Positions 10,529-14,832 of a DNA stretch of 39,101 nucleotides are shown here, one piece after another; the stretch's first letter is position 1; every line of letters begins with the position of its first letter. Source of the stretch: Synergistaceae bacterium (GTDB lineage Bacteria > Synergistota > Synergistia > Synergistales > Aminobacteriaceae); contig JAFSXS010000106.1 in NCBI GenBank assembly GCA_017443945.1, positions 1 to 39,101 of the forward strand, written 5' to 3'. A model generated the notes under the pieces. The model had not been told where the DNA came from. It ran no database searches and saw only the letters and a program-made list of their open reading frames with translations. Made by a program: the position numbers and the translations under genes.

Positions 10529-11818
10529 ATGAAAATTTTTTTTGTGAGTATGGGCTGTGCTAAGAATACTGCTGATAGCGAGCATTTAATTAGCCGGCTC
10601 ATTGCTTGCGGACATGAAATTATTGACGAGTCCTCAACTGCCGACGCTGCAATAATAAACACTTGCGGATTCATTCAGGACGCAGTAAAAGAAAATATCA
10701 GCGCAATTCTTGATCTCGAAGAATTAAAGACTCTCGGACAAATTAAGACTCTCATTATTGCGGGCTGTCTCGTTAACCGCTATGAGTCAGAGTTACGGCA
10801 GGAATTTCCGAGCGTTGATTTATTTGCGCGTTCTGAGGAGTGGGACAAGGTTATAAATTTTCTCGGAGGTCATGAGAATAACAACTGCAAAATTGTTAGT
10901 CCTGCACTGAATAAAAATTTTTGGACTCGCTATCTCAAGATAACAGAAGGCTGTAACACTTTATGTTCATATTGCGCGATTCCGTTAATCAGGGGCAAAT
11001 TAAGGAGTGTTCCATTAGAGACTCTTATAAATGAAGCTCATATGCTTGCAATTTCGGGAGCGCGTGAAATTTGCTTAGTCGGTCAGGATTTGACAGTTTA
11101 CGGCCAAGATTTTAATAACGGTACGAGTCTAAAAACTTTGATTCACGAGTTAAATAACGAACTCCCCGCCGGCACTTGGATAAGATTATTATATCTGCAC
11201 CCTAATAGAGTCAATGAAGACTTGATAAATTTTTTGCTCGAACATGAAAAAGTTTTGCACTATTTAGATATTCCCATTCAGCACGCAGACCCGGAAATTT
11301 TATCGCGCATGAACAGACCCGTAAAATCAGGACACTTAGAGAAAATTTTTAGTTACATCAGGAGTCTTGATAATTTATTCACGTTACGAACTACGATAAT
11401 GACAGGTTTTCCCGGTGAGAGCAATAAAAATTTTGAACGGGTAATAGATTTTATCAGCGAAATAGAATTTGATAGACTCGGCTGCTTTGTGTATTCGCCT
11501 GAAGAAGGAACTAAGGCCGCAAAATTTCCCGATCAAGTACCGCACAAAATTTCTGAGTCACGGTGTAATAAGTTAATGCAGATTCAATCGCAAATTTCAC
11601 AGGAACGCAGCGAATTATTTATTAACAGAGAGCTTGATATATTAGTTGAAGAGCTTGACCCGGAAAATAAACAAGTCTGGGGGAGAAGTTATCGCGATGC
11701 GCCGGAAGTTGACGGGTTAATCTGTGTATCAGGCTGCAAGAACGTCAAGCCGGGAGATTTAATACGCGCAAAAATTTATGATTGCGAAGAAAATGATTTA
11801 TTCGGAGAAGTGATATAA
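10529..11818 (+). CDS. rimO: Ribosomal protein S12 methylthiotransferase RimO
   Basis: A radical-SAM methylthiotransferase that adds a methylthio group to an aspartate of ribosomal protein S12. The N-terminal MTTase domain has its cluster cysteines at C10 (SMGCAKN), C46 and C80. The radical-SAM cluster motif C142-x3-C146-x2-C149 lies in EGCNTLCSYC, and a TRAM-like domain occupies the last 60 or so residues (ELDILVEELDPENK onward). RimO is favoured over MiaB by the SMGCAKN opening and the 429-residue length. It follows the Mrr-like gene by 6 nt and is followed by pgpA after 3 nt, so the three form one transcript. Confidence 0.93.
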   Translation: MKIFFVSMGCAKNTADSEHLISRLIACGHEIIDESSTADAAIINTCGFIQDAVKENISAILDLEELKTLGQIKTLIIAGCLVNRYESELRQEFPSVDLFARSEEWDKVINFLGGHENNNCKIVSPALNKNFWTRYLKITEGCNTLCSYCAIPLIRGKLRSVPLETLINEAHMLAISGAREICLVGQDLTVYGQDFNNGTSLKTLIHELNNELPAGTWIRLLYLHPNRVNEDLINFLLEHEKVLHYLDIPIQHADPEILSRMNRPVKSGHLEKIFSYIRSLDNLFTLRTTIMTGFPGESNKNFERVIDFISEIEFDRLGCFVYSPEEGTKAAKFPDQVPHKISESRCNKLMQIQSQISQERSELFINRELDILVEELDPENKQVWGRSYRDAPEVDGLICVSGCKNVKPGDLIRAKIYDCEENDLFGEVI

Positions 11819-11821
11819 ATT

Positions 11822-12307
11822 ATGAAAAATATGAAGAATTACCCTTTTTATGTATGGATTGCAAGTTTATTCGGACTGGGCTTTATTCCGTCGGGAATGC
11901 CGGGGACTGTGAGTTCATTTGCTGCGTGCGTTGTGAGTGCCTTTGTTGATGTTCCGTTATGGGCAATTATAGCAATAAGCATTATAGGAGTATGGGCGAC
12001 TGATAAATCAGAAAAATTTTTCAACCGCAAAGATCCGAGCTTCCTAAATATTGACGAAGTGCCGGGAATGTGGATAACTATTTATTTGCTGCCGAAAAGT
12101 TTTATAATTCCTGGATTCTTTCTGTTCAGGTTGATTGATATTCTAAAGCCTTGGCCGGTCTCAGCGATGGAAAAATTACCCGGAGGCTGGGGAATAATGG
12201 CCGATGATATTTTAGGGGGAGTCATGGGAAATATAATATTGCAGGTCATTAACGCATATTTATACAATAGCGGCTGGGTTTATGGATTGATTCAAGCGAT
12301 GAAATAA
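11822..12307 (+). CDS. pgpA: Phosphatidylglycerophosphatase A
   Basis: Removes the phosphate from phosphatidylglycerol phosphate in the inner membrane, the last step of phosphatidylglycerol synthesis. The 161-residue product has family hallmarks: GFIPSGMPGTVSS near the N-terminus, FRLIDILKPWP in the middle and the acidic ADDILGGVMGN motif before the last helix. It has about four hydrophobic segments. The end of the gene, including its stop codon, is partly duplicated 22 nt downstream (12296-12308 and 12318-12330). The hairpin at 12340-12376 follows, probably ending or attenuating the transcript. Confidence 0.92.
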   Translation: MKNMKNYPFYVWIASLFGLGFIPSGMPGTVSSFAACVVSAFVDVPLWAIIAISIIGVWATDKSEKFFNRKDPSFLNIDEVPGMWITIYLLPKSFIIPGFFLFRLIDILKPWPVSAMEKLPGGWGIMADDILGGVMGNIILQVINAYLYNSGWVYGLIQAMK

Positions 12308-12330
12308 TATTTTACTGGCGATGAAATAAT
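12296..12330. repeat. Short direct repeat over the pgpA stop codon
   Basis: The 13-mer GCGATGAAATAAT occurs at 12296-12308 and 12318-12330, period 22, with the following bases also similar (ATTTT / GTTTT). The first copy contains the last codons and TAA of pgpA. It looks like a replication-slippage duplication. Confidence 0.8.
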
Positions 12331-12339
12331 GTTTTGCTT

Positions 12340-12379
12340 GCCGCCGCCTCCCCACCCACCCACCCTCGGCGGCGGCTTT
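12340..12379 (+). terminator. GC-rich hairpin with C-tract loop between pgpA and cinA
   Basis: A perfect 9-bp stem GCCGCCGCC (12340-12348) / GGCGGCGGC (12368-12376) with a 19-nt loop is followed by only three T. The loop contains four C-runs separated by single A residues (12350-12365), so the opposite strand carries GGGTGGGTGGGTGGGG, a textbook parallel G-quadruplex sequence. The short T-tract makes it a weak intrinsic terminator; it may instead be a processing or pausing element. Confidence 0.6.
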
Positions 12380-12408
12380 CCGTTGAATAAAATGTGAGGT
12401 GAATCATA

Positions 12409-13638
12409 ATGAATAATGCTGTACTCGCTGCAATAGGCGACGAACTATTAAGCGGCGTGAGACTCGAAAAAAATTGCAACTTCATGGCTTGGCACTTACA
12501 TAATAACGGCGTTGAAGTCCGAAAAATTGAAGTTATCCCCGACACCGAGTCAGAAATTACGAATCTTTTATCACGCTGGGCAGGGAAAACAGATCTATTA
12601 ATAATTTCCGGCGGATTAGGGCCGACTCATGACGATAAAACACGTTACGCAATCACAAAATTTTTAGGCTGCGAATTAGAATCAAGTCCCCTCTACGATA
12701 AAATTTTAGAACGCGTCAAACACGATAAATTACGATATGAACGACTCGCAAAAACCCGCGACCCTCAAGCGTTAATCCCGGCAAAAGCTCAAGCAATTTA
12801 CAACCCGACCGGCTCTGCTCTGGGAATAAAATTTATCGTCAACAACACAAAAATTTTCGCTCTTCCCGGCGTTCCTATGGAATATGAGTCAATGATACGT
12901 CAGGAATTACCCGAAATTTTTTCGCGCGATAATAAAAATTGCTGGACCTCTGTTATAATTCTCGGCCTGCCTGAACTCGAAATCGCTCATAGAATCCCCG
13001 AAATAATAAATAATCAAGCTCTTCACGTTTCAATATTGCCCGCGTCGCCTCAAGTCGAATTAATCATCAGGGGAAATCCTGAACTCGTCGAGAATGCAGA
13101 AAATTTGACTCGATCGCGCTTTGATAATGTTTTGCCGAAAAATTGCATGTCCCTAGCTGAAGCAGTCTTACACGAGGCCAAGACTCATAACGTAAAAATT
13201 TCTTGCGCTGAGTCATGTACAGGCGGATTAATCGGTGCAGCTTTAACAGATATTGCGGGAAGCTCTGAATCTTTTAACGGTTCGGCGGTAACTTACAGCA
13301 ACGAGGCCAAGCAAAAAATTTTAGGCGTAAAGAGTGAGACTCTAAAAAATTTCGGTGCAGTCAGTCAAGAATGTGCGCTTGAAATGGCAGAAGGCGCGAT
13401 AAAAATTTATGACTCAGATTTTGCAGTGTCAGTAACAGGCATAGCAGGCCCTGACGGAGGAAGCGAATCAAAACCTGTCGGACTTGTTTATTTCGGTCTT
13501 GCGTCGCGTGAAAAGTCTGCTGCGTTCAAGAAAGTTTTTCCCGGCAATAGAAACGAGATTCGCACAAGGACTGTAAGATTTGCACTTGCTGAACTCTGGC
13601 GGACGATTCGAGATAATAACCCCTCGCCTGTATTATAA
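12409..13638 (+). CDS. cinA: CinA: competence/damage-inducible protein, NMN amidohydrolase
   Basis: A two-domain protein of 409 residues. The N-terminal MoCF/molybdopterin-binding-like domain (about 1-170; IGDELLSG, ISGGLGPTHDD) corresponds to the ADP-ribose pyrophosphatase part. The C-terminal PncC nicotinamide-mononucleotide deamidase domain (about 250-405) contains SCAESCTGGLIG, VTYSNEAK and SVTGIAGPDGG. The likely role is recycling pyridine nucleotides released during DNA ligation. The ATG has GAGGTGA 8 nt upstream. The close placement just before recA is a widespread arrangement. Confidence 0.94.
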   Translation: MNNAVLAAIGDELLSGVRLEKNCNFMAWHLHNNGVEVRKIEVIPDTESEITNLLSRWAGKTDLLIISGGLGPTHDDKTRYAITKFLGCELESSPLYDKILERVKHDKLRYERLAKTRDPQALIPAKAQAIYNPTGSALGIKFIVNNTKIFALPGVPMEYESMIRQELPEIFSRDNKNCWTSVIILGLPELEIAHRIPEIINNQALHVSILPASPQVELIIRGNPELVENAENLTRSRFDNVLPKNCMSLAEAVLHEAKTHNVKISCAESCTGGLIGAALTDIAGSSESFNGSAVTYSNEAKQKILGVKSETLKNFGAVSQECALEMAEGAIKIYDSDFAVSVTGIAGPDGGSESKPVGLVYFGLASREKSAAFKKVFPGNRNEIRTRTVRFALAELWRTIRDNNPSPVL

Positions 13639-13670: not shown

Positions 13671-13686
13671 GGAAGTGATTAAACTG
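13671..13686 (+). promoter_or_regulatory. Ribosome binding site pointing to a CTG start of recA
   Basis: GGAAGTGA at 13671-13678 lies 5-6 nt before CTG at 13684. The in-frame GTG at 13675 is itself inside this site and has no proper site of its own. Starting at CTG gives MAKAVKKAAQ, the usual RecA N-terminus. Confidence 0.55.
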
Positions 13687-14832
13687 GCTAAAGCTGTAAA
13701 GAAAGCTGCACAAACAAAGGAACAAATTTTAGAGGAAGCAATCGGCGATATTCGCTCAAAATTTGGGGACGGCGCAATAATGAGACTCGGTGATACAGCA
13801 AATAAAAATATTGACGTGGTCTCTAGCGGGATTCTTCCTCTTGATGTTGCACTAGGAATCGGCGGTTATCCAAAGGGTAGAATCGTAGAAATTTTCGGGC
13901 CTGAAGGTTCAGGAAAAACGACAATTGCATTATGTGCGATCGCAGAAGTTCAGAAGGCCGGCGGTATTGCAGCATTTATTGACGCAGAACACGCACTTGA
14001 CCCGCGACTCGCTTCGACTCTGGGCGTAAAAATTGAAGATTTGTATCTCGCACAACCTGACAGCGGCGAACAGGCTTTATACGTGTTAGATCAGCTTGTG
14101 AGAACCGGCGCAGTTGATATTGTAGTTGTTGATTCTGTTGCAGCTTTGACTCCTCAGGCAGAAATTGACGGACGAATCGGCGAGAGTCAAATGGGACTTC
14201 AGGCGCGTTTAATGTCGTATTCATTGAGAAGACTCGCTTCAATAATTGCGAAAACAAATTGCATCGTAGTATTTATTAATCAGTTAAGAGCGTTAATCTC
14301 AACAGGTTATGCACCCGGACCAAGTGAGACAACAACAGGCGGACGGGCGTTAAAATTTTATGCGTCAGTTAGACTCGAGGTCAGGCGCGGAAAGAAAATC
14401 GACAAAAGCGACGTTACAATCGGGCACGAGCTTTATTTAAAAGTTGTGAAAAATAAATTAGCTCCACCCTTCAGGACTGCACATGCAAGTTTAATTTACG
14501 GAAAAGGAATCCCCGTCGGCGTTGCAGTTGTTGATATGGCGATAGATTATAACGTGATCAACAAAAAAGGCGCGTGGCTTGCGTACAAAGGCGAGACTCT
14601 CGGACAAGGCAAAGAAGCTGTTGCAAAATTTTTGTCAGAGAATCCCGCGTTACAGGACGAAATTATGAAAGCTATCATGTCAGAAGTAAATAAAGGTATA
14701 GGCTACATGCCCGACGCAGCAGAATTAGCAGAATCAGAGTCCGACGACATACCGCCCGAAGAAGTTAATCCCGAAAATTTAGACTCTGAGTCAGATGATG
14801 AAATTCTTGATATTTCTGATGACGAGAAATAA
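13684..14832 (+). CDS. recA: Recombinase RecA
   Basis: Homologous-recombination ATPase forming filaments on single-stranded DNA. With the CTG start it is 382 residues, close to the usual 340-380. It has Walker A GPEGSGKT at 72-79, MGLQARLMS ahead of loop L1 and the L2 region ending ETTTGGRALKFYASVR. L2 reads RALISTGYAPGPSETTTGG, two residues longer than in E. coli (RMKIGVMFGNPETTTGG). The C-terminal tail is very acidic (ESESDD...), as in other RecA proteins. The start at CTG 13684 rests on the ribosome site; GTG 13675 adds three residues. No LexA-type operator is visible upstream; expression may come through cinA. A terminator follows at 14842. Confidence 0.96.
   Translation: MAKAVKKAAQTKEQILEEAIGDIRSKFGDGAIMRLGDTANKNIDVVSSGILPLDVALGIGGYPKGRIVEIFGPEGSGKTTIALCAIAEVQKAGGIAAFIDAEHALDPRLASTLGVKIEDLYLAQPDSGEQALYVLDQLVRTGAVDIVVVDSVAALTPQAEIDGRIGESQMGLQARLMSYSLRRLASIIAKTNCIVVFINQLRALISTGYAPGPSETTTGGRALKFYASVRLEVRRGKKIDKSDVTIGHELYLKVVKNKLAPPFRTAHASLIYGKGIPVGVAVVDMAIDYNVINKKGAWLAYKGETLGQGKEAVAKFLSENPALQDEIMKAIMSEVNKGIGYMPDAAELAESESDDIPPEEVNPENLDSESDDEILDISDDEK

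What the first reader, a model, noticed from the sequence alone, without database searches (positions are those of the whole stretch)
12340..12379. G-quadruplex motif inside the loop of a perfect GC hairpin
The minus strand of 12350-12365 reads GGGTGGGTGGGTGGGG, the most stable class of quadruplex, framed by a perfect 9-bp GCC/GGC stem in an AT-rich chromosome. The C-rich strand is in the transcript direction, so the DNA could fold as quadruplex on one strand and i-motif on the other, between pgpA and cinA-recA. It may control transcription or replication through cinA-recA.
Basis: partly seen in the sequence, partly recalled or inferred. Interest (0 to 1): 0.55.

Follow-up and report, generated by a model that had tools for sequence, protein, structure and literature searches.

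The report
Dispersed hairpins with quadruplex loops
The motif is one copy of a family of small DNA hairpins scattered through this bacterium and some of its relatives, in which the stem varies from copy to copy while the four-stranded-DNA motif in the loop stays the same; here it was gained between pgpA and cinA and is not a conserved switch of cinA-recA.

Summary
In detail: a perfect 9-bp GCC/GGC stem (12340-12348 / 12368-12376) closes a loop whose minus strand is GGGTGGGTGGGTGGGG. It is the only quadruplex motif in the window.

It is not a conserved feature of this operon: 25 of 26 relatives with pgpA and cinA on one held stretch have -4 to +17 nt between the genes; the window has 101. The own genome carries 25 such GCCGCC hairpins, 23 with four G-runs, and 56 exact cores. 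Nine of 43 genus genomes carry the core, 145 copies in all.

In 87 copies (class A) the core is mostly the loop of a hairpin whose stem varies but stays self-complementary, usually 3-18 nt past a stop codon, C-strand in the mRNA; at five of six sites relatives hold an ordinary terminator-like hairpin there. Copies also sit in frame inside der and dnaX. Five unrelated GTDB contigs show the same architecture.

Best reading: a REP-like, non-autonomous copied hairpin whose conserved part is a quadruplex loop. Rival: a 3'-end signal. It lacks the GTAG tag, and the two species with the GCCGCC form showed no Y1 transposase. Folding, mover and effect are untested.

The parts
12340..12376 (+). quadruplex-loop hairpin (class A copy), whole element
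   Evidence: one of 25 GCCGCC..GGCGGC hairpins of the own genome
12340..12348 (+). left arm GCCGCCGCC
12368..12376 (+). right arm GGCGGCGGC
12350..12365 (-). conserved core, GGGTGGGTGGGTGGGG on this strand (quadruplex motif); C-run on the + strand, which is the sense strand of pgpA and cinA
   Evidence: the 15-nt core CCCACCCRCCCACCC occurs 56 times in the own genome and 145 times in 9 of 43 genus genomes
12296..12339 (+). imperfect tandem duplication of 22 nt covering the end of pgpA and abutting the hairpin
12308..12408 (+). 101-nt pgpA-cinA spacer, gained relative to 25 of 26 relatives (-4 to +17 nt)
11822..12307 (+). pgpA (PF04608)
12409..13638 (+). cinA (PF02464, PF00994)
13675..14832 (+). 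recA (PF00154)

Best explanation
It is one member of a dispersed, REP-like family of short DNA elements that are copied around the chromosome. Each class A unit is a hairpin whose arms may have almost any sequence but pair with each other, and whose loop is a conserved parallel-quadruplex motif, GGGTGGGYGGGTGGG (usually G before, A after). SHOWN: many copies at unrelated sites; self-complementary arms that differ between copies and species; retained G-runs in the loop; gain relative to relatives (pgpA-cinA spacer, Der linker); placement just past stop codons with the C-strand as mRNA, and in frame inside a few genes. INFERRED: the G-strand, exposed as single strand in replication or transcription, folds as a duplex capped by a quadruplex; an unidentified enzyme or repair process acting on that shape copies it, so loop and palindromy are kept while arms drift or are exchanged; positions right behind stop codons are the least harmful landing sites. 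In the window it separated pgpA from cinA, which overlap or nearly touch in relatives, by about 100 nt.
For: Copy number: 25 GCCGCC hairpins, 56 cores, 145 cores in 9 of 43 genomes, patchy from 56 down to 1. Arms: 56 of 79 class A copies with enough flank reach 8 bp-equivalent with their own partner, against 358 of 4834 pairings with arms from other genomes; 44 distinct inner arms. Control for the core alone: 0 of 123 cores in viral contigs have an 8-bp stem (control motif: 0 of 119), against 47 of 78 class A copies by the same measure. Loop: four G-runs kept in 23 of 25 and 16 of 17 stem-selected hairpins. Gain: 25 of 26 relatives have -4 to +17 nt where the window has 101; G016, which has no core at all, has other sequence at the sites compared. 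Copies inside coding sequence: the linker of the GTPase Der in G023 is longer by a segment holding the hairpin, absent in 28 of 28 other Der linkers visible; in G094 the same peptide SAAPSHPPTPVAA, encoded at hairpins with the same arms, lies in DnaX and in a second protein. Outside the phylum: five GTDB contigs (Chthonomonas UBA2362 x2, Marimonas lutisalis x2, Phycisphaerales) have stems of 16 and 10, 21 and 14, and 10 bp round the same core although the search asked for 6.
Against: No mover found: Y1 transposase (PF01797) is absent from G000 and G093, the two genomes with the GCCGCC form; it is in 15 of 43 genus genomes, of which only 3 (G032, G008, G025) carry the core. No target-site duplication was established; the duplication beside the window copy lies on one side only. 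No GTAG tag in 75 hairpins. The orientation bias (19 C-sense to 3 G-sense in tandem gene pairs) and the terminator slot at five of six sites fit a 3'-end function as well or better. Some genomes (G014, G023, G027) have few copies with nearly all-different stems, which simple copying does not predict. 11 of 79 class A copies have under 6 bp-equivalent. Quadruplex folding was not measured.
Confidence: 0.5

Rival explanations
1. A 3'-end signal: the hairpin with a C-rich RNA loop, or with a quadruplex in the template strand, ends transcription or protects mRNA 3' ends, and the loop is kept because RNA polymerase, Rho or another RNA-binding protein needs it. Copies arise by duplication and by convergence.
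For: Class A copies lie mostly 3-18 nt past a stop codon; 31 lie between convergent and 2 between divergent genes; tandem pairs 19 C-sense to 3 G-sense, p 0.0009. At five of six own-genome sites relatives hold a terminator-like hairpin in the same slot. Both G025 copies and some others are followed by T-runs. In the unrelated contigs two copies follow a called stop codon in C-sense (L155, L156) and two more by eye (L157, L159).
Against: Only 17 of 71 class A copies with a stem have 5 or more T in the 9 bases after it, 3 of 21 in the own genome, where A-runs are commoner (13 of 21). Several copies stand in front of a separate ordinary terminator-like hairpin (L111, L112, L132, L221, L223, by eye). 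Copies lie inside coding sequence of der and dnaX. The window copy lies inside what is a tightly coupled gene pair in relatives. Class C has the opposite orientation (11 G-sense to 2).
Confidence: 0.32
2. A recombination or replication-pause site like the Neisseria pilE quadruplex: the folded G-strand starts gene conversion or stalls the fork, and this also explains why the motif is copied into other hairpins.
For: The motif is of the same class as the pilE G4, required for pilin variation (abstract of PMC3547852). Copies lie near contig ends far beyond chance: 33 of 145 within 150 nt, 16 of 33 in G093, about 2.6 expected in all, which fits a polymerase-blocking structure but also a plain repeat. 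At the L109/L242 site the element is in opposite orientation with another stem in two species.
Against: Upstream genes are of many unrelated families; silent cassettes were not seen but also not searched for. No recombination data.
Confidence: 0.1
3. A local regulatory quadruplex conserved for control of cinA-recA.
For: Position between pgpA and cinA-recA, C-strand in the transcript.
Against: Not at the junction in any of 26 relatives; the same element lies at many unrelated genes.
Confidence: 0.04

Closest known systems
REP sequences (GTAG- and CGTC-tagged palindromes) with RAYT/TnpA-REP transposases
   Same: Short palindromes, tens of copies, species-specific families, some copies inside genes (PMC3733652, passages read); placement behind genes is recalled for REPs and shown here
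   Different: No GTAG tag in 75 hairpins, CGTC beside the stem in only 3 (left) and 1 (right); no Y1 transposase in G000 or G093. Here the loop is conserved and the arms vary; GTAG loops measure 2-3 bp in many families. The word quadruplex does not occur in that paper
Rickettsia palindromic elements inserted in frame in genes (recalled; a cited title on palindromic repeats in protein evolution was seen, not read)
   Same: Palindromic elements also found in frame in protein-coding genes
   Different: No quadruplex loop known to me; not compared by sequence here
Neisseria pilE G4 (PMC3547852, abstract read)
   Same: Four-run G motif of the parallel class; its letters are recalled, not taken from a call
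   Different: One locus with an sRNA that starts within the G4 sequence; no hairpin stem round it as far as I recall. Here many copies beside diverse genes
Intrinsic (Rho-independent) terminators
   Same: GC-rich hairpin past the stop codon, same slot as terminator-like hairpins of relatives
   Different: T-rich tail mostly absent (17 of 71 have it); loop conserved and arms variable, the reverse of a large survey in which spacers vary more than arms near terminators (PMC13155455, passages read)
TM_ECO intrastrand triplex repeats (PMC4666352, abstract and passages read) and Xanthomonas/Nostoc quadruplex repeats (PMC4692102, search listing with start of abstract only)
   Same: Repeated structure-forming G/C-rich DNA in bacteria
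   Different: TM_ECO follows CCCTCNCCC..GGGNGAGGG..GGGNGAGGG on one strand, unlike the window element; the other paper concerns simple sequence repeats

Membership tests
REP (GTAG/CGTC) repeats | short palindrome, many dispersed copies | tested here: met
   25 hairpins in the own genome, 17 in G093 (counted)
REP (GTAG/CGTC) repeats | GTAG or CGTC tetranucleotide at one end | tested here: not met
   GTAG 0 of 75; CGTC 3 (left side) and 1 (right side) of 75
REP (GTAG/CGTC) repeats | RAYT (Y1_Tnp) gene in the genome (GTAG class) | tested here: not met
   PF01797 not found in G000 or G093; both assemblies about 96% complete
Intrinsic terminator | GC-rich hairpin shortly after a stop codon | tested here: met
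   at the window copy 32 nt lie between stop and stem
Intrinsic terminator | U-tract right after the stem | tested here: not met
   17 of 71 class A copies; window copy has TTT, then CCG; the terminator scan did not list it, its loop limit being 8
G-quadruplex | four runs of three or more G with short loops | tested here: met
G-quadruplex | folds as such in K+ or in the cell | not testable with these tools
   only an energy prediction
Described RNA family (Rfam 15) | match to a covariance model | tested here: not met
   no match up to E 1 in window 11800-12800
pilE-type programmed recombination G4 | G4 next to a variable gene with silent donor copies | tested here: inconclusive
   upstream genes of 72 class A and C copies are diverse families, none of the 25 shown in more than two members; donor copies were not searched for

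The most novel reading that the evidence does not exclude
A new class of structure-defined DNA element: the conserved unit is a parallel quadruplex used as the loop of an otherwise free palindrome. It is copied by a process that reads the folded shape and not the arm sequence, settles behind stop codons (replacing or pre-empting terminators) and occasionally in frame inside essential genes, and occurs in at least four bacterial phyla. The same core is embedded in two further repeat architectures in this genus (class B between direct repeats, class C beside an inner hairpin), so the quadruplex itself is the recognised part.
Probability: 0.33. Interest if true: 0.85.

Novelty: new variant of a known kind. 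Interest (0 to 1): 0.62.

Why it matters
Bacterial palindromic repeats are known by arm sequence and tag, and loops of hairpins at gene ends normally vary more than arms. Here it is the reverse, with a very stable quadruplex class as the invariant loop. If a process copies DNA by reading a quadruplex-capped hairpin, it is a new way for mobile DNA to be recognised; if instead the loop serves gene ends, it would be the first case I know of a quadruplex as a recurrent 3'-end part. Natural replicates (145 copies, many stems, core-free sister species such as G016) make both readings testable.

Tried and rejected
Chance motif: rejected. Conserved operon switch: rejected. Plain terminator: the scan did not list it and most copies lack a T-run. 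Known RNA family: none. RAYT-driven REP: no Y1 transposase in G000 or G093, no GTAG tag. Plasmids: no match for the Marimonas copy. Shared neighbour function: 72 upstream proteins hit 94 Pfam families, none of the 25 shown in more than two members (the alignment of unrelated proteins served only as a container). Triplex and Xanthomonas repeats: different motifs.

Limits. Classes were separated by simple regular expressions; a few G093 copies without a clear stem (for example L207, L226) fell into class A and dilute its counts; searches dropped copies with too little flank at contig ends. The ORF caller is my own greedy script; in GC-rich contigs it picked antisense ORFs for L157 and L159, so their stop codons are read by eye; L158 is unclear. 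Organism names were not available for the genus; only the record titles are names. Paper searches done; none of the listed titles and abstracts is about a bacterial repeat family with a quadruplex as hairpin loop, but most subscription papers are not held.

Full report
Observation. The hairpin is as described: arms 12340-12348 and 12368-12376, fully complementary, loop 12349-12367 with CCCCACCCACCCACCC on the plus strand. Nothing like it is expected by chance and no other four-run motif is in the window. The plus strand is the sense strand of pgpA, cinA and recA (Pfam identities).

The site is not conserved. pgpA and cinA were found together on one held stretch in 27 genomes: the own one with 101 nt between them, 25 relatives with -4 to +17 nt, and G005 with 479 nt. 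In about ten of these the downstream match is only the C-terminal CinA domain. The hairpin was therefore gained in a tightly coupled pair. A 22-nt imperfect tandem duplication of the end of pgpA stands directly in front of it.

It is one of a family. A search of the own genome for GCCGCC..GGCGGC found 25 distinct places (32 counts, overlaps included; none for the reversed control pattern). Their loops all carry the C-rich core; 23 of 25 keep four runs. The exact core CCCACCCNCCCACCC occurs 56 times, with only A or G at N. 23 of these are hairpins (class A); the other 33 (class B) lie between arms that look like direct repeats of several subtypes and not in hairpins. The direct-repeat signal of class B is weak by my count: mean 7.9 of 11 with the own partner against 7.4 with others, although subtypes of left and right arms match in all 18 copies where both could be typed, of 31 examined.

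Distribution. The full GCCGCC form with the core is in 2 of 185 genomes of the phylum, G000 and G093. The core is in 9 of 43 genomes of the genus: G000 56, G093 33, G094 28, G032 8, G014 7, G023 7, G027 3, G025 2, G008 1. All 145 places were read. In G014, G023, G025, G027 and most of G094 the core is again the loop of a hairpin, but the stems are different, for example CGCCGACCTATGC/GCATAGGTCGGCG, ACCGCGACTTTTC/GAAAAGTCGCGGT, ACTCGCGCCCTC/GAGGGCGCGAGT. In G032 and part of G093 (class C) an AT-rich outer stem encloses the core and a second small hairpin.

Controls. Own arms pair far better than exchanged arms: 56 of 79 against 358 of 4834 between genomes and 437 of 1328 within genomes. The core as such does not imply a stem: 0 of 123 viral places and 0 of 119 places of a control motif reach 8, against 47 of 78 class A copies. 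By that close-loop measure classes B (31) and C (20) also score 0; the class C stem only shows when the inner hairpin is allowed.

Where copies lie. Class A, 87 copies by the labels: 31 between convergent genes, 19 in C-sense and 3 in G-sense tandem pairs, 2 between divergent genes, the rest at contig ends, without a near gene on one side, or over called ORFs. Class C is turned the other way (11 G-sense, 2 C-sense). Class B shows no preference (7 and 9). At six own-genome sites compared with G016, G093, G032 and G017, five have a terminator-like hairpin of other sequence in the slot of at least one relative (L145, L119, L111, L110, L093; judged by eye), one has none (L095). At L119 the tail of the old terminator seems still recognisable beside the element, as if the element landed in it and the old hairpin decayed (inference).

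Copies in genes. G023 has a longer linker in Der (EngA) that holds the hairpin; 28 other linkers visible lack it (identity by Pfam). In G094 a hairpin with the same arms gives the peptide SAAPSHPPTPVAA in DnaX and in a second conserved protein without Pfam match; G014 has a copy with another stem in the linker of that second protein. Some other 'inside' labels are short ORFs and probably not genes.

Some sites are shared between species: four G000-G093 pairs in the same orientation (L103-L246, L139-L241, L120-L252, L143-L231; in the last the distance differs by 264 nt) and one in the opposite orientation with another stem (L109-L242). So part is inherited, part moved or replaced.

Outside the phylum. 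The one GTDB-wide scan, restricted to GCCGCC arms, gave five contigs: Chthonomonas UBA2362 (two), Marimonas lutisalis (two), a Phycisphaerales genome. Stems extend to 16 and 10, 21 and 14, and 10 pairs; 10 could be chance in GC-rich DNA, 14-21 hardly. L155 and L156 follow a called stop codon in C-sense; L157 and L159 do so by eye; L158 is unclear.

Interpretation. Copying is the safest inference: near-identical units at unrelated places, including reading frames, with empty relatives. The constant part is the loop, the arms only need to pair; this points to a process that reads a shape, most simply the G-strand folded as a duplex capped by a quadruplex. Which enzyme does it is unknown; the obvious candidate for REPs was looked for and not found in G000 or G093. 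The orientation bias and terminator slots keep a 3'-end function in play, as a cause or as a consequence of where copies are tolerated. Contig ends are strongly enriched at copies (33 of 145, about 2.6 expected), which fits blocked polymerases or simple repeat collapse.

Membership. REP-like in anatomy and placement, but two defining features of GTAG REPs were tested and not met, so it is not filed as a REP. Not an intrinsic terminator by the U-tract test for most copies, window copy included.

Noticed in passing
G000 loci L094-L147, e.g. L100, L127, L105, L131: Class B: 33 copies of a roughly 110-bp intergenic repeat with the same C-run core between arms such as TTATCGCGCGAAT/GGTAGCGCGAAT, GGAGTCGCGTTTA twice, GTATTCCACGCG twice; arm subtypes match left to right. 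Found on both sides of genes without orientation preference.
   Followed up: partly
G032 and G093, e.g. L198, L247: Class C: TATTTACC or TATTCTACT outer stem enclosing the core and a second small hairpin, G-strand in the mRNA.
   Followed up: partly
window 12296-12339: 22-nt imperfect tandem duplication of the end of pgpA directly before the hairpin.
   Followed up: partly
G000 contigs C56 and C58: Two Der (EngA) genes with open frames of 441 and 442 aa, each 88-89% identical to the G023 query over the second GTPase domain, in one assembly; a duplicate or contamination.
   Followed up: no
L157 and L159 (Marimonas lutisalis): Both hairpins are followed some 50 nt on by a shared stretch like GAGTATTT..GCCAAGAAAGAGC.
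   Followed up: no
G005 locus L039, pgpA-cinA region: Tandem repeats carrying copies of the start of cinA between pgpA and cinA; the gap is 479 nt.
   Followed up: no
G093 contig ends: 16 of 33 cores lie within 150 nt of a contig end, 0.6 expected.
   Followed up: partly
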